Assembly: GCA_016866775.1 (NCBI GenBank)
Contig: VGLJ01000013.1
Coordinates: 18,785-82,784, forward strand
DNA length: 64,000 nucleotides
Source: Candidatus Rokuibacteriota bacterium
GTDB lineage: Bacteria > Methylomirabilota > Methylomirabilia > Rokubacteriales > CSP1-6
Reading direction: 5' to 3'
Positions 626-46,666 of this stretch are shown here, piece after piece. The notes beneath the pieces are model-generated. The model worked only from the letters and a program-made list of their open reading frames with translations. It made no database searches and was not told where the DNA came from. The first letter of the stretch is position 1. The number at the start of each line of letters is the position of its first letter. The position numbers were made by a program, and so were the translations under genes.

Positions 626-1558
626 TTAGCGGGGACGGAGATGGACGACGTGACCGTCGGGATCGCGCACGAGCGACGGCTTCTCGCCCGAGGGGACGAC
701 ACCGATGATGCGCCAGGCGGCGAGATCGTTCATGCGCAGATCGCTCGGCATCGGGCGCCCGGTGCGCGGCTCGAGGTACTCGAGGAGCTCCACGGCGATG
801 CCGGCCGGTGCCGCCAGCGTCGTGATGCGCAGGCGCGCCCCGGGGACGTCGTTGAGCGCTTCCTGCTCGGGGCCGTGGTTGAGGCTCTCGCCCTTGAGGC
901 GCATGCCGAGCCCGTCGCGATAGAAGCGCAGGCTCTGCCCGGTGTCGGCGACGGTGATGGCGGTGTGGTCGATCCCGAGGAAGAGCCGATGCGTCCGGGC
1001 CCAGCGCGGGTCGCCCTTGTCCGGCGGGAAGTCGAGGATCTCGAGCGGATGCCCGTCGGGGTCACGGAAGTAGTACGCGTGGATCCCGCCGGCGTTCGGA
1101 TTCCACTCCGGCAGCCGCTGCGGCGACGCGGAGATGCCGGGCACCTGGTGACGCAGGAGCAGGTCGTGCGCCTTCTCCATGTCGCTCACGATGATCGCGA
1201 TGTGCTGGAACCAGCGGTCGTTGCTCCGCGAGTCCTTCGGGACCGGGCGCCCGCGCGCGCCGAACGCGATGAGCTCGATGCGCTCGTCGCCCAGCTTCAG
1301 CGTCGCCACCTTCGCCCGCCCGTCGCGCAGCCCGAAGAACGCGTTCCACTCCGGGCCGTTGAGGGTCTTCTCCGCGATCTTCTCGAAGGTCAGCACGCGC
1401 GTGTAGAAGGCGACCGCACGCTCGAGGTCGGAGACCGTGAGCCCGATCGCGTCGACCGCCTCGACGCGTGCCGCCGTCACGGCGGGCGCGGGCGTTTCGT
1501 GAAGCCACAACACCGCGGGCAGGACGAGCGCCGCGAAGGTCAGAGCGAGGCGGAGCAT
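626..1558 (-). CDS. Two-domain VOC (glyoxalase/bleomycin resistance) protein with signal peptide
   Basis: GLTVSDLERAVAFY ... DPDGHPLEILDFP ... GIDHTAITVADTGQSLRFYRDGLGM ... DPDGHVVHL. Confidence 0.85.
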   Translation of the reverse strand: MLRLALTFAALVLPAVLWLHETPAPAVTAARVEAVDAIGLTVSDLERAVAFYTRVLTFEKIAEKTLNGPEWNAFFGLRDGRAKVATLKLGDERIELIAFGARGRPVPKDSRSNDRWFQHIAIIVSDMEKAHDLLLRHQVPGISASPQRLPEWNPNAGGIHAYYFRDPDGHPLEILDFPPDKGDPRWARTHRLFLGIDHTAITVADTGQSLRFYRDGLGMRLKGESLNHGPEQEALNDVPGARLRITTLAAPAGIAVELLEYLEPRTGRPMPSDLRMNDLAAWRIIGVVPSGEKPSLVRDPDGHVVHLRPR

Positions 1559-1589
1559 CCCGGGGATCCTATGCCATAATCCCGCCGCC

Positions 1590-2117
1590 GTGACGGCCGA
1601 GTCTCCGTCTGCGCGCGCCGACGAGAAGGAGCGCTCGGTTCTCGTGGGTGTCGTCACCAGCTCCGTCGGCCTTCCCTTCGGCATCCTCGCGGTCGTGCTC
1701 GCCAACTCCGTCGCCCTGCTCGCGGACCTCCTGCGTGCCGCCGCGGCGCTGGTGGCCGTCGTCCTCTCGTGGCTGACGCTGCGGGCCGTGCGCCGCGCAC
1801 GACCCGACGCCTTCAACTACGGCCTCGGCAAGCTCGAGAGCTCGGTGCACGATCTCCTCGATCGCGCGCTCGAGGAATCGCGCCAGCTGCTCATCGTCCG
1901 CGTGCTCGCGCAGCACTTCGACGCGTACGAGCACGTGCGCGAGGTGCGCTCGCGGCGCTCCGGCGCGCGCATCTACATCGAGATCTTCCTGGGCTTCGAC
2001 GCGAGCCGCACGCTCGGCGGGGTGCAGCGCGCGGTCGACGCGATGCGGGCCGACCTCGAGGCGCTCATCGCCGGCAGCAGCGTGGTGATCGTTCCGGCCG
2101 CGGTGCGACCCGCGTGA
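1590..2117 (+). pseudogene. Cation diffusion facilitator family protein with internal segment missing
   Basis: CDF N-terminus (VLANSVALLADLLRAAAALVAVVLSWL...FNYGLGKLES) joined directly to a CDF cytosolic domain-like end (SVHDLLDRALEESRQLLIVRV...EIFLGFD); TM3-6 absent. Confidence 0.6.
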
Positions 2118-2518: not shown

Positions 2519-2857
2519 CATCACGCCGCCGCACAGGCGCACCGCGCTCGCGACGATGGTCTGGAACACACGCTCGCGCGCCGCGAACGAGGGCCAGAGC
2601 GCGAACGAGAGGAGCGCGGCGATGCCGCCGTCGAGGGCCGCGTCCACGAACACGCTGCGGATCCCGGCGGTCTTCCGGTCGGCGGCCCTGCGGGACAGCG
2701 CGCGCCCGAGCGGTGCCCAGCCGACGACGAGCGCGGACAGGCCGAGCCAGACCACCGTATCGCCGGAGCGCGCCGTGAGCATGATCGCGAGCACGAAGAG
2801 GTAGCTCCCGACCCGGCCATAAAAGTTCAGACGGACGAGCGGATGCTCACGCGGCAT
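2518..2857 (-). pseudogene. MASE2-like membrane sensor domain, 3' truncated (catalytic domain missing)
   Basis: MPREHPLVRLNFYGRVGSYLFVL...VGWAPLGRALSRRAADRKTAGIRSVFVDAALDGGIAALLSFALWPSF resembles MASE2 domains of nucleotide cyclases. Confidence 0.5.
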
Positions 2858-2870
2858 GCGACGGAAACGT

Positions 2871-3053
2871 CTAGTCGCCCATGATCTCGCAGATGCCGAC
2901 CACTTCGTTGTAATACCCGTCGCACGACGCCGCCTCCGGCGCGACCGGCGCCTGGAAGTCCGCGTCACTGCGCACGTTCGCGACGGCATGCGTTCCGGCG
3001 CCCGCGGCGACGAGCGCGACCAGGCTGAGCGCTGCAGCGATCTTCGACTTCAT
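2871..3053 (-). CDS. Small secreted Cys-motif protein, family member A (60 aa)
   Basis: MKSKIAAALSLVALVAAGAGTHAVA... signal peptide; C-terminus SCDGYYNEVVGICEIMGD* matches members B and C. Confidence 0.7.
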   Translation of the reverse strand: MKSKIAAALSLVALVAAGAGTHAVANVRSDADFQAPVAPEAASCDGYYNEVVGICEIMGD

Positions 3054-3111: not shown

Positions 3112-4107
3112 CTACGGCGCGCAGGCCCGCAGGGCGGCGAGGACGCGCGCCTTCGCGTCGGAGCCGCCGCCGCGCGGGCTGACGATCGGCAACGTGATGC
3201 CGGAGGCGCGGTACCGCTCGATCTTCCCGCGACATTCGGCCGGCGTGCCCGCGAGCGTGACCGCGTCGATGAGCTCGGCGGGCACGAGGCGCGCGGCCTG
3301 GTCGCGGTCGCCACGGCCCCACGCGGCCTTGACCTGCGCGACGGCATCGGCAAACCCCGCCTCCGCGAGCAGGCGGTTGTAGCGCGGAAAGAACCCGACG
3401 TAGAACGCCAGCCCGGGTCTGAGACGCTCGCGTGCCTCGGCACCGTCGTCCGCCACCTGGCAGGGCAGCAGCGACGCGATCTCGACGTCCTCGGGCCGCC
3501 GGTTCGCGCGCCGCGCGCCGATGGCGACGTTGTGGGCCGCGCGACGTCCGGCCTCCAGCGTCGGGTACGTCAGGATCACGCCCTGCGCGAGCTCGCCGGC
3601 GACCTGCAGCATCGTCGGAAACAACGCCGCGAGATAGATCGGGATCTCGCGACGGGCCGGTGCGAACCAGAGGTCGAAGCGCTCGATCTGGATGACCTCG
3701 CCCTTGTGCGACACGACGCCGTCGCGGAGCAGCGCGCGGACGATTGCGACAGTGTCGCGCACGCGCGGGATGGCGCGGCCGAACGCGAGCCCGTGCTCGC
3801 CTTCGACCTGCACGCGGTGGCTCGAGCCGAGGCCGAGGATGAAGCGTCCGGCCGAGAGCTGGTCGACCGTGGCCGCCGCCATCGCGATGGTCGGCGCGCT
3901 GCGAACGAACACGCTCGAGATGCTGGTCCCGAGCCGGATGCGCGTCGTGACCGCCGCGCACGCGCTGAGGACCGCGAAGTGATCGCCGGCGTGGCCTTCG
4001 GCCATCCACGCGGACTCGTACCCGAGCTCCTCGGCGAGCCGGACGCACTCGACGATCTCGGTCGGGGTGAGTCCGGTGTTGCTGAAGGCCACGCCGATGC
4101 GTCTCAT
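3112..4107 (-). CDS. LLM class flavin-dependent oxidoreductase
   Basis: MRRIGVAFSNTGLTPTEIVECVRLAEELGYESAWMAEGHAGD...LSAGRFILGLGSSH. Confidence 0.88.
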   Translation of the reverse strand: MRRIGVAFSNTGLTPTEIVECVRLAEELGYESAWMAEGHAGDHFAVLSACAAVTTRIRLGTSISSVFVRSAPTIAMAAATVDQLSAGRFILGLGSSHRVQVEGEHGLAFGRAIPRVRDTVAIVRALLRDGVVSHKGEVIQIERFDLWFAPARREIPIYLAALFPTMLQVAGELAQGVILTYPTLEAGRRAAHNVAIGARRANRRPEDVEIASLLPCQVADDGAEARERLRPGLAFYVGFFPRYNRLLAEAGFADAVAQVKAAWGRGDRDQAARLVPAELIDAVTLAGTPAECRGKIERYRASGITLPIVSPRGGGSDAKARVLAALRACAP

Positions 4108-5477
4108 CCGCCGAGGCGGTCGACGAGCGCGCGCGCCCAGGCCATGCGGTCGGGCGACATGACGAGCTTTTCGGCGAAGGGCTGACCGAACGGGCGCGTC
4201 GCGTCGATCCCCAGCTTCGCGGTGACCCCGCGCTCGTCGGCGCTCGGGTCCAGCATCGCGCCGAGGCTGCCGGCGATGACGACGAGGTCGCGGTCGGCCT
4301 GCATGCGCGTCGCGACCGCCCACATCACCTCGGACTCGTCGAAGACGTCGATGTCGTCGTCCACGACCACCACGAGCTTCAGGTAGTGGTCGACGCCGAG
4401 GACGATCGGGATCACGTGCTTGGCTTCGCCGGGCCGGCCCTGCGTGATCGAGACGTAGGCGGTGAACGAGGACGTGCCGGACAGCGGCACGTGGACGCCG
4501 GTGACGTTCGGGATGACGCGCGACACCGCGTTGGTGATCTCCGCCTCGCGGATGAGCCCGAGCGTGGTGATGTGGTCGCCGGCGCGGCCGGACCCGATCG
4601 ACTGGAACCACGGGCGCTCGCGCATGGCGATGGCGCGCGCCTCGAACACGTGCTGCGTGCTGCGTCGCGAGAAGTAGCCGGTGAACTCGCCGAACGGCCC
4701 TTCGGGCTCGCGCACGCCGGGCAGGATCTCGCCTTCGATGACGATCTCCGCGGTCGCGGGCACGTGGACGTCGGACGTCAGGCACGGCGCGATCTGGAAC
4801 GGCTCGCCGAACAGGCCGCCGATGACGTCGAACTTGCCGACGTCCGCGGGCGGATACGCCAGCGAGCCCATCGACACGAGCGGGTGCACGCCGAGCACGA
4901 CCGCGCACGGCAGCGGCTGGCCCCTGGCCTCGGCGCGCCGCTGGTACTCGAACATCCGCCGGCGTGAGTGGAGGCTCACGCCCATCTTCGTCCGGCCCTT
5001 CACCTGGAAGCGGTGGTAGCCCTCGGTCTCGACGCCGGTGTCGGGATCGCGCGCGACCAGCAACCCGGCCGTCAGATAGCGCCCGGCGTCACCCGGAAAA
5101 TATTCGGGGATCGGCAGCGCGGCGAGGTCCACGTCGGCGCCGCGCAGCACGCGGGCGCGGAACGGCGGATCGGCGACGATCACCGGCTTCACGTAGTCCT
5201 TGATCCGCCGCGCGTACTCGTTGGCGAGCCCGCGCTCGGTCGTGTCGAGCGCGAACCCGAGCGAGCGGCGGCTGGCGACGACGTTGGCGATGATCGGAAT
5301 GTCGGAGCCGGTCACGTTCTCGAAGAGCAGGATCGGAGAGCGCCGCCGGCGCTCGTACTCCAGCACGAGCGCCATCACGTCGTGCTCGAGCGACACGGCG
5401 TCCGGCACGCGCACGACCTCCCGCGGGTAGGCCGCCTCGTAGGCGGCGACGAAGTGGCGCAGGCTCTGACGGTCCAT
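4104..5477 (-). CDS. UbiD family decarboxylase
   Basis: ILLFENVTGSDIPIIANV...GREPEGPFGEFTGYFS-type motif (REPEGPFGEFTGYFSRRSTQHVFE). Confidence 0.9.
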   Translation of the reverse strand: MDRQSLRHFVAAYEAAYPREVVRVPDAVSLEHDVMALVLEYERRRRSPILLFENVTGSDIPIIANVVASRRSLGFALDTTERGLANEYARRIKDYVKPVIVADPPFRARVLRGADVDLAALPIPEYFPGDAGRYLTAGLLVARDPDTGVETEGYHRFQVKGRTKMGVSLHSRRRMFEYQRRAEARGQPLPCAVVLGVHPLVSMGSLAYPPADVGKFDVIGGLFGEPFQIAPCLTSDVHVPATAEIVIEGEILPGVREPEGPFGEFTGYFSRRSTQHVFEARAIAMRERPWFQSIGSGRAGDHITTLGLIREAEITNAVSRVIPNVTGVHVPLSGTSSFTAYVSITQGRPGEAKHVIPIVLGVDHYLKLVVVVDDDIDVFDESEVMWAVATRMQADRDLVVIAGSLGAMLDPSADERGVTAKLGIDATRPFGQPFAEKLVMSPDRMAWARALVDRLGG

Positions 5478-6376
5478 CACGGCGCCGCGGCCGGTGGAGG
5501 CCACGGAATGCCGAGTCTGTCCAGGCGACGCAGCCGATCCTGACCGAGCTGATCGTCCCACACCTCGGCGAGCGCATCCGGCGTCCAGCCGTCGGCGCGC
5601 GTCGCGGTTCGGAGCGGGGCCGGCTGCGACCACACCGCCACCTGGTTGCCGCGGACGTGCACGATCTGTCCCGTGATGTGCGCGGCCCTGTCGCTCACCA
5701 GGAACGCGGCGACGGGCGCGACGCCCTCCGGCGGCGCGAGGATCTGGCCGCGCCGCTGCTCGGGCACCCGCTCGGTCATGCGGGTGAGCGCCTCGGGCGA
5801 GATCACGTTGGCGCGCACGCCGTACTTCGCCATCGCCAGCGCCGTCGAGCGCATGAGCCCGACGATGCCTTCTTTCGCCGCCGAGTAGTTCGGTTGCCCC
5901 GGGCTGCCCTCGAGGCCGGCGGTCGACGTGAACCCGATGAGACAGCCGCGACGCTTCTCGCGCATGTGACGCGTGGCCGGCCGCCAGACCGTGAAGTGCC
6001 CCTTGAGGTGCACCTGGACGACGGCGTCCCACTCCTCTTCGCTCATGTTGAAGATCATCCGCTCGCGAAGGATGCCGGCGCAGCAGACGACCCCGTGAAG
6101 ATCGCCGAACTTCGTGAGCGCCAAGTCGACGACCGCTTCGCCGCCCGCCATGGTCGCGATGCTCTCGGCGAAGGCGACCGCGCGGCCGCCGCGCGACTCG
6201 ATCTCCTTGACGACGGCGTTCGCGGGCTCGCTCGACGGATGTCGCCCGTCGACGCTCACCCCGTAGTCGCTGACCACCACGCTCGCGCCGGCGGCGGCGC
6301 ACCCGAGCGAGACGGCGCGGCCGATTCCCGTCCCGCCGCCCGTGACCACGACGACCTTTCCGTCGAGCAATCCCAT
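5477..6376 (-). CDS. SDR family oxidoreductase
   Basis: GKVVVVTGGGTGIGRAVSLGCAAAGA; catalytic PNYSAAKEGIVGL. Confidence 0.92.
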   Translation of the reverse strand: MGLLDGKVVVVTGGGTGIGRAVSLGCAAAGASVVVSDYGVSVDGRHPSSEPANAVVKEIESRGGRAVAFAESIATMAGGEAVVDLALTKFGDLHGVVCCAGILRERMIFNMSEEEWDAVVQVHLKGHFTVWRPATRHMREKRRGCLIGFTSTAGLEGSPGQPNYSAAKEGIVGLMRSTALAMAKYGVRANVISPEALTRMTERVPEQRRGQILAPPEGVAPVAAFLVSDRAAHITGQIVHVRGNQVAVWSQPAPLRTATRADGWTPDALAEVWDDQLGQDRLRRLDRLGIPWPPPAAAP

Positions 6377-44015: not shown

Positions 44016-44999
<984 letters not shown>

Positions 45000-45001
45000 C
45001 G

Positions 45002-46204
45002 TCACGCCGCCTCGACGGGGAATCGCATGGTGACCCGCGTGCCGCGCCCGGGCTCGGAGGCGATGTCGATGCGGCCGCCGTGCGCGGCGACGATCCGCTC
45101 GGCGATCGTCAGCCCGAGTCCGCTCCCGTTCGGCTTGCCCGAATAGAACGGCTCGAACACGCGCGCGAGCACGTCGGCGGGAATGCCGGGCCCGGTATCG
45201 CTCACCGCGAGCCCCACGTGCCCGTCCTCGCGGCCGACCTCGAACGACAAGCGCCCGCGGCCGTTCATCGCCTGCACGCCGTTGAGCGCGACGTTCCAGA
45301 GGACCTGCGTCACCTGGTCGCGCTCGAAGGGGAAGCGCGGCACGGCCGGGTCGACCGCCACTTTCACGTCCACACGGGGCGCGCGCGAGCTGCGGATCGC
45401 GCCGACCGTCGCCGCGCGCTCCTCCGTCGTGAGCCCGGCCTCGTCGGTGAGGAGCGCCGTGGCATTGACGATGGCGGCGAGCGGATTGCGGATCTCGTGC
45501 GCCATGCCGGCGGCGAGCTCGCCCGTCGTGGCGAGGCGCTCCGCTTCGCTCAGCCGCGCGTGGAGCCGCTCGCTCTCGCGGCGCGCGTGCTCGAGCACCA
45601 TGATGATGACGGCGAACGTCGAGAGGAAGTAGAGCGTGATGAACACGCCGTGCATCGTGAAGTACGCCGCCGACCCGGGCGGCGCGTCCACGAACTGCGT
45701 CCACACGCGATGCAGTCCCCACAGGACGAGCAGGCCGGCGAGCAGCCGCTCCCCACGCACGCGCCCGCGGCTCTCCTGCGTCCGCCACGGCCAGAACAAC
45801 GCGCCCGCCGCGATCTGCACGATGCCGAGCGCCGCGCCGACGACCTGAAGACCTTCACTGCCGCGGCCGAGCGTGGTCACGAGCGCCAGCACGAGCGCGA
45901 GCGCGCCGCCGATGAGGACGTCGCTGCGCCTGAGGCGATAGTCCCACCCGTGCGCGAGCGCCGCGGCGAGGATGAAGCCGACGGCCGCGACGGTCGCGAC
46001 ACCGGTCGCGACGCTCGGATCCTCGAGCCCGAAGATGACGACGTCCACGACGCGCAGGCCCTTCGACAGGCCGTACGCGCCCCAGCCGAAGAGGAGGTAG
46101 CGGAAGAACCGCAGGCGGTGCGACGAGTAGAGGTACGCGAAGATCAAGAGCTGGATCGCGAAGGCGACCGTCGAGATACAGGTCAGGACCAGCGGCACCG
46201 GCAT
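45002..46204 (-). CDS. Membrane sensor histidine kinase
   Basis: About 7 TM N-terminus; [57 protein letters not shown]. Confidence 0.92.
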
Positions 46205-46294: not shown

Positions 46295-46387
46295 GTTTCA
46301 CTTCAGAACGCCGTTCCAATCCGGAACACCGGCTCCTTTTGACCAGGGCCGCTGTTCCAATGTGGACCACCCGTTCCGCGGTGAAAC
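46295..46387. promoter_or_regulatory. Putative upstream activator array: four 15-bp palindromes in two pairs
   Basis: GTTTCACTTCAGAAC (46295), GTTCCAATCCGGAAC (46313), GTTCCAATGTGGACC (46354), GTTCCGCGGTGAAAC (46373); spacings 18, 41, 19 bp. Confidence 0.6.
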
Positions 46388-46441: not shown

Positions 46442-46457
46442 TGGCACGCCGTGTGCC
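46442..46457 (+). promoter_or_regulatory. Putative sigma-54 promoter toward the repeat-peptide gene
   Basis: TGGCACGCCGTGTGCC: full TGGCACG, GG-N10-GC spacing. Confidence 0.6.
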
Positions 46458-46486
46458 CTCTGCCCCACGCTCAGGAGGACAACAAC

Positions 46487-46666
46487 ATGAAGCGCAGACA
46501 TGCAGTCGCACTCGGTCTCGCGGCGGTGCTCCTCACGAGCGCCGCGCACGCCGCGCAGGACGTGGTCGAAGCCCCGCGCGGCCAGGACGTCGTCGAGGCC
46601 CCGCGCAGCCAGGACGTCGCGCAGGCGCCACGTGGTGAGGATCCGGTCCAGGCGCCGCGCAACTAA
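46487..46666 (+). CDS. Small secreted tandem-repeat protein (59 aa)
   Basis: MKRRHAVALGLAAVLLTSAAHA + AQDVVEAPRG QDVVEAPRS QDVAQAPRG EDPVQAPRN*; AGGAGGA ribosome-binding site upstream. Confidence 0.75.
   Translation: MKRRHAVALGLAAVLLTSAAHAAQDVVEAPRGQDVVEAPRSQDVAQAPRGEDPVQAPRN
46556..46663 (+). repeat. Four tandem 27-bp (9-codon) units
   Basis: caggacgtggtcgaagccccgcgcggc and three diverged copies; consensus [QE]D[VP][VA][EQ]APR[GSN]. Confidence 0.9.

What the first reader, a model, noticed from the sequence alone, without database searches (positions are those of the whole stretch)
46487..46666. Secreted protein consisting of a signal peptide plus four 9-residue repeats
After a clear signal peptide (…LLTSAAHA) the whole mature product is AQDVVEAPRG QDVVEAPRS QDVAQAPRG EDPVQAPRN, i.e. 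[QE]D[VP][VA][EQ]APR[GSN] x4. The DNA repeats have diverged at synonymous and non-synonymous positions while keeping the APR core, suggesting selection on the peptide rather than recent duplication. The regular Arg at each unit end would allow cleavage into equal nonapeptides. That is speculation: a multi-copy pro-peptide or an adhesive/disordered surface peptide are both possible.
Basis: partly seen in the sequence, partly recalled or inferred. Interest (0 to 1): 0.72.

Follow-up and report, generated by a model that had tools for sequence, protein, structure and literature searches.

The report
Stress-regulated secreted QAPR-repeat peptide of Rokubacteria
This small exported protein, made almost only of a repeated nine-residue motif, belongs to an undescribed protein family found in nearly every genome of one soil- and groundwater-bacterial family and nowhere else searched, and it is the apparent dedicated target of a neighbouring two-protein signalling system.

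Summary
Window 46487-46666 (+) encodes a 59-aa protein: a Sec signal peptide, then A plus four [QE]D[VP][VA][EQ]APR[GSN] units. No shuffle of the mature part is as periodic. The gene is real: good ribosome site, orthologues, pN/pS as low as 0.22 in moderately diverged pairs.

It belongs to an unnamed family of exported repeat proteins present in 53 of 57 genomes of its GTDB family (Candidatus Rokubacteria) and in 0 of 38 other genomes of the phylum. The shared core is [DE][VI]QAPR. Most species carry a long form (helix with Cys, 4-41 units, helical hairpin with Cys) beside M16, rhomboid and HtrA-like proteases. The window's short form sits divergently from a histidine kinase and an NtrC-type regulator, behind a sigma-54 promoter and a palindromic enhancer pair. 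That pair occurs once in each of 11 genomes, always in this gap, and in none of 46 others.

Best reading: a disordered, multivalent envelope effector of a dedicated sigma-54 two-component system, wired like ZraPSR but unrelated to ZraP. 'Equal nonapeptides' is not supported, because spacing varies; Arg is the best-kept residue, so processing is not excluded. The window's own kinase and regulator carry in-frame deletions.

The parts
46487..46552 (+). Sec signal peptide MKRRHAVALGLAAVLLTSAAHA (AxA cleavage motif, no lipobox Cys)
   Evidence: Sequence; hydrophobic core and position conserved in 12 orthologues
46556..46582 (+). Repeat unit 1, QDVVEAPRG
46583..46609 (+). Repeat unit 2, QDVVEAPRS
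46610..46636 (+). Repeat unit 3, QDVAQAPRG
46637..46663 (+). Repeat unit 4, EDPVQAPRN, followed by the stop codon 46664-46666
46473..46478 (+). Shine-Dalgarno AGGAGG
46442..46456 (+). Sigma-54 promoter TGGCACGCCGTGTGC (GG-N10-GC)
   Evidence: Same element aligned upstream of the gene in 8 genomes and present in 4 more kinase-linked loci; the own genome encodes sigma-54
46295..46309 (.). Enhancer palindrome 1, GTTTCACTTCAGAAC (one mismatch)
   Evidence: Paired with palindrome 2 at 18-bp phase; the pair is unique in the genome
46313..46327 (.). Enhancer palindrome 2, GTTCCAATCCGGAAC
46354..46368 (.). Degenerate palindrome GTTCCAATGTGGACC
   Evidence: Sequence only; weak
46373..46387 (.). Enhancer palindrome 3, GTTCCGCGGTGAAAC
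   Evidence: Aligned across orthologous promoters
45002..46204 (-). Divergent sensor histidine kinase with a polytopic N-terminus (about 6-7 hydrophobic segments), HisKA and HATPase_c; carries a 43-residue in-frame deletion relative to orthologues
   Evidence: Pfam, hydropathy, alignment
44016..44999 (-). NtrC/AtoC-type sigma-54 response regulator; a 121-residue in-frame deletion relative to orthologues removes part of the receiver and the Walker A motif
   Evidence: Orthologue domains; alignment

Best explanation
The window gene encodes a Sec-exported, intrinsically disordered peptide that presents several copies of a short linear motif, [DE][VI]QAPR, in the cell envelope (periplasm). It is the dedicated output of the divergent two-component system. 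A polytopic sensor kinase phosphorylates an NtrC-type regulator, which binds the palindromes at 46295-46387 and fires the sigma-54 promoter at 46442-46456. The logic resembles ZraSR/ZraP: an envelope signal leads to a burst of a small periplasmic effector, which probably acts by multivalent binding of an envelope partner or of misfolded or protease-bound protein. The long paralogue does the same kind of job under other control, beside a cluster of extracytoplasmic proteases. Shown by sequence and comparison: export signal, repeat family, selection, sigma-54 promoter, enhancer pair and its uniqueness, synteny. Inferred: periplasmic residence, disorder in vivo, envelope-stress role, motif binding.
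For: Promoter and enhancers: TGGCACG-N4-(N)TGC and three GTTYC-N5-GRAAC palindromes are conserved between kinase and repeat gene in 8 aligned genomes and in 4 further loci. The paired palindrome occurs exactly once in each of 11 genomes, always in this gap, in none of 46 others, and never with the reversed control. Linkage: of 13 genomes with the kinase at 60% identity or more, 11 have the repeat gene divergently next to it; one is cut by a contig end, and in one the promoter now drives a different small gene and an ECF sigma factor. Envelope contexts of the family: an ECF sigma factor plus zf-HC2 anti-sigma beside the G039 member, an ECF sigma factor after the G044 member, fusion to PG_binding_1 in G052, and M16, rhomboid and HtrA-like proteases around the long form. 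Motif: Q 94%, A 89%, R 94% over 462 AP/SP/TP-centred units in 40 proteins while linkers vary. Repeats are modelled without structure: pLDDT about 40 in the long form, no secondary structure in the short form.
Against: No expression or localisation data exist and no binding partner is known. In this assembly the regulator lacks 121 residues including Walker A and the kinase lacks 43; the missing regulator segment is not found elsewhere in the genome at high identity. So here the system is either mis-assembled or decaying. The envelope-stress signal is inferred from neighbours, not from the sensor domain, which matches no Pfam family. The long form, which is nearly universal, has no link to this kinase.
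Confidence: 0.55

Rival explanations
1. Multi-copy pro-peptide: the exported precursor is cut after each Arg (QAPR|G) by an extracytoplasmic protease into short peptides, which may act as a signal, a substrate or a bioactive product.
For: Arg is the most conserved residue of the unit in kinase-linked forms, 54 of 55; the long-form spacer SLAGAR also ends in Arg or Lys; the mature product is only repeats; proteases flank the long form in most genomes.
Against: Spacing is 8, 9, 10, 13 and more within and between proteins. Some family members have QAPV, QAPL or QAPA units (G016). The long-form HtrA-like protease lacks the Asp of Arg-specific trypsins. No protease is next to the short form.
Confidence: 0.2
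2. Accessory or feedback regulator of its own kinase: the secreted peptide binds the sensor's outer face and damps or triggers it, like ZraP on ZraS, or a pheromone on a polytopic kinase.
For: Exclusive pairing with one polytopic kinase and auto-wiring of the promoter.
Against: The same motif is nearly universal in long proteins not linked to any kinase; the kinase N-terminus has little predicted extracytoplasmic domain.
Confidence: 0.15
3. Physical filler: a flexible, zwitterionic low-complexity polymer (wall spacer, crowder or condensate former) in which composition, not the motif, matters.
For: At most one aromatic residue per protein, D/E and K/R in similar numbers, repeats unstructured in models, repeat number free to vary.
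Against: Position-specific conservation of Q-A-P-R while linkers drift and synonymous divergence between near-identical peptide units (22 units in L062, no two neighbours identical in DNA) point to a sequence-specific need.
Confidence: 0.1

Closest known systems
ZraPSR of enteric bacteria (PMC4987338)
   Same: A sensor kinase plus sigma-54 response regulator controls a divergent promoter for a small exported protein; NCBIfam ranks AtoS and ZraS first for the kinase, and AtoC, NtrC and ZraR first for the regulator, all below cut-off.
   Different: The exported protein is a four-unit disordered repeat with no match to any Pfam model; the sensor is polytopic rather than known to carry a periplasmic zinc sensor; the signal is unknown.
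PEP-CTERM PrsK/PrsR systems
   Same: Polytopic kinase and sigma-54 regulator; PEP_resp_reg and PEP_his_kin models match below cut-off.
   Different: No PEP-CTERM sorting signal on the target; the target family is different.
Multi-copy peptide precursors such as yeast alpha-factor (own knowledge)
   Same: Secreted precursor with several similar units, each ending at a basic residue.
   Different: Unit length and sequence vary within one precursor; no dedicated processing protease identified.
Small metal-binding protein (SMBP) type helical hairpins
   Same: The long form's C-terminal hairpin gives SMBP among its structure matches.
   Different: Chance level (E above 1), no His-rich motif, and absent from the window's protein.

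Membership tests
ZraP (zinc-associated periplasmic chaperone) | Sequence match to the family's Pfam or NCBIfam models | tested here: not met
   No Pfam hit at E up to 1; NCBIfam gives only a chance signal-peptide match
ZraP (zinc-associated periplasmic chaperone) | Divergent from a kinase plus sigma-54 regulator, sigma-54 promoter | tested here: met
ZraP (zinc-associated periplasmic chaperone) | Zinc-dependent chaperone activity | not testable with these tools
   Needs protein; the mature window peptide has no His or Cys
Rokubacterial QAPR-repeat family (defined here) | Sec signal peptide plus three or more [DE]x(0-2)[QE][AS]PR units | tested here: met
Rokubacterial QAPR-repeat family, long form | N-terminal CPPEV helix and C-terminal EAEAACKAG hairpin | tested here: not met
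   Absent from the window protein; present in A1 members
Multi-copy pro-peptide | Demonstrated cleavage between units | not testable with these tools
   Needs mass spectrometry
Sigma-54-dependent gene | GG-N10-GC promoter with upstream enhancer, and a sigma-54 gene in the genome | tested here: met

The most novel reading that the evidence does not exclude
A Gram-negative peptide-signalling circuit: a Sec-exported precursor carrying several Arg-ended copies of a short peptide is processed outside the inner membrane and sensed by the divergent polytopic kinase, which through sigma-54 amplifies the precursor's own gene.
Probability: 0.08. Interest if true: 0.88.

Novelty: new variant of a known kind. 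Interest (0 to 1): 0.6.

Why it matters
It defines a signature protein family of an uncultured bacterial lineage: found in 53 of 57 genomes of the family and nowhere else searched, with no match above cut-off in Pfam or NCBIfam and none significant in PHROGs. It also attaches one branch of that family to a specific, testable sigma-54 switch. The near-universal long form inside a cluster of extracytoplasmic proteases, one of them with a probable selenocysteine rhodanese domain, suggests an envelope protein-quality system particular to Rokubacteria. The clean enhancer and promoter footprint gives a ready reporter for finding the signal.

Tried and rejected
Pfam, NCBIfam and PHROGs for the repeat protein: no match except chance hits to the signal peptide or low-complexity part. 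Phage records: no match. PDB by sequence and by fold with the long form: nothing significant. Paper search for the motif 'QAPRG': two unrelated papers. Trypsin-type cleavage by the neighbouring protease: weakened by the S1 position. Other targets of the regulator: a search for the enhancer pair found only this one site in the own genome. A spurious-ORF reading was rejected on orthologues, pN/pS, ribosome site and promoter footprint.

Full report
OBSERVATION. It has an AGGAGG ribosome site, a Sec signal peptide ending SAAHA, then one Ala and four 9-residue units. The periodicity of the mature part was not reached in 100,000 shuffles. Units differ by synonymous changes more than by amino-acid changes. 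Among 11 orthologues pN/pS falls to 0.22-0.35 in several moderately diverged pairs. This is a real, selected gene.

FAMILY. A search of the own genome found a second, longer repeat protein broken over two contig ends: its start is on C47, and its end, followed by a protease gene, is on C153. Relatives showed a large family. A long-form query hit 53 of 57 genomes of the same GTDB family and 0 of 38 other genomes of the phylum. A scan of one genome per species for 85,462 species gave 30 loci, all named Candidatus Rokubacteria or Rokuibacteriota. The shared core over 462 units in 40 proteins is [QD][DE][VI]QAPR[GS]; by-protein weights are Q 94%, A 89% and R 94% around the Pro used as anchor, while the linkers vary in length and sequence. 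There are several architectures. The long form has a signal peptide, a CPPEV helix, 4 to 41 units often interrupted by SLAGAR, and a C-terminal EAEAACKAG hairpin; AlphaFold models the helices with confidence and the repeats as unstructured. The short form has only a signal peptide and repeats, like the window's. One member carries a PG_binding_1 domain. No library or solved structure gave a significant match.

CONTEXT OF THE SHORT FORM. In the window the gene is divergent from a histidine kinase and an NtrC-type regulator. The kinase N-terminal half finds 17 of 57 family genomes. Of the 13 at 60% identity or more, 11 have the repeat gene divergently beside it, one is cut by a contig end, and in G035 the slot holds another small gene and an ECF sigma factor. 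A more distant kinase in G031 also has a repeat gene. Upstream of the repeat gene, eight aligned genomes share TTTGGCAC-N6-TGC, a sigma-54 promoter (T-less in a few first positions), and three GTTYC-N5-GRAAC palindromes, two of them 18 bp apart. The palindrome pair occurs once in the own genome and once in each of ten others, always in this gap, in none of 46 remaining genomes, and never in the reversed-pattern control. The own genome encodes sigma-54. This is a dedicated switch.

CONTEXT OF THE LONG FORM. In most genomes it lies between two divergent M16 peptidase genes (with a rhomboid protease beyond) and a co-directional HtrA-like Trypsin_2 protease, then HIT. In a few the HtrA-like gene is missing from this place. 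The own genome's two contig ends fit the same order. The residue six before the catalytic Ser is Pro or Ala, not Asp, so Arg specificity is not expected by the classical rule (sequences; rule from general knowledge).

MECHANISM. The best reading is a periplasmic, disordered, multivalent motif protein, released by a dedicated sigma-54 system in the way ZraSR releases ZraP. ZraR drives divergent sigma-54 promoters for zraSR and zraP, and ZraP is a periplasmic chaperone in envelope stress (PMC4987338). Independent hints at the envelope are ECF sigma/anti-sigma neighbours (G039, G044), the PG_binding_1 fusion (G052), and the protease cluster of the long form. What the motif binds is unknown. Arg is the best-kept residue in kinase-linked units (54 of 55), which fits either binding or cleavage. 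Varying unit length argues against a product of equal peptides.

CAVEAT. Compared with orthologues, the window's kinase lacks 43 and its regulator 121 residues, both in frame; the latter removes the Walker A motif. The missing regulator stretch is not elsewhere in the genome at high identity. Either the assembly dropped these pieces or the circuit is decaying in this organism. The family-level case rests on the intact relatives.

Noticed in passing
L007:327-1757 (-), also L049, L057-L059, L061, L062, L068, L070, L074, L075: The HtrA-like protease next to the long repeat gene ends in a membrane segment and a rhodanese domain whose frame stops at AYC[TS]-TGA in 11 of 11 copies; the reading after the TGA is conserved (PDExTSARxAxxL...GYxDVxILKGGL), so the TGA is probably selenocysteine. 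The own genome has a tRNA-Sec above the Rfam cut-off.
   Followed up: partly
window 44772-44819 and 45365-45406 (-): In-frame deletions of 121 and 43 residues in the response regulator and kinase relative to all orthologues aligned; assembly error or decay not decided.
   Followed up: partly
L135 (G035:C152), about 4054-4926 (-): In G035 the same enhancers and sigma-54 promoter drive a small non-repeat gene followed by an ECF sigma factor; in G044 an ECF sigma factor follows the repeat gene.
   Followed up: partly
L045 (G039:C63) 732-1977 (-): A short repeat gene follows an ECF sigma factor and a zf-HC2 anti-sigma factor.
   Followed up: no
L069 (G052:C131) 5440-6108 (+): QAPR repeats fused to a PG_binding_1 peptidoglycan-binding domain.
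   Followed up: no
L046, L060, L143: A second long repeat gene lies beside conserved genes of another set, including CBS-domain-like proteins.
   Followed up: no
L121 (G012:C5) 2729-2878 (+): Beside a distant homologue of the kinase there is a small secreted ORF without repeats, MKRLTLALLLAFTALSGVGVASADEATGPNSIQVE.
   Followed up: no
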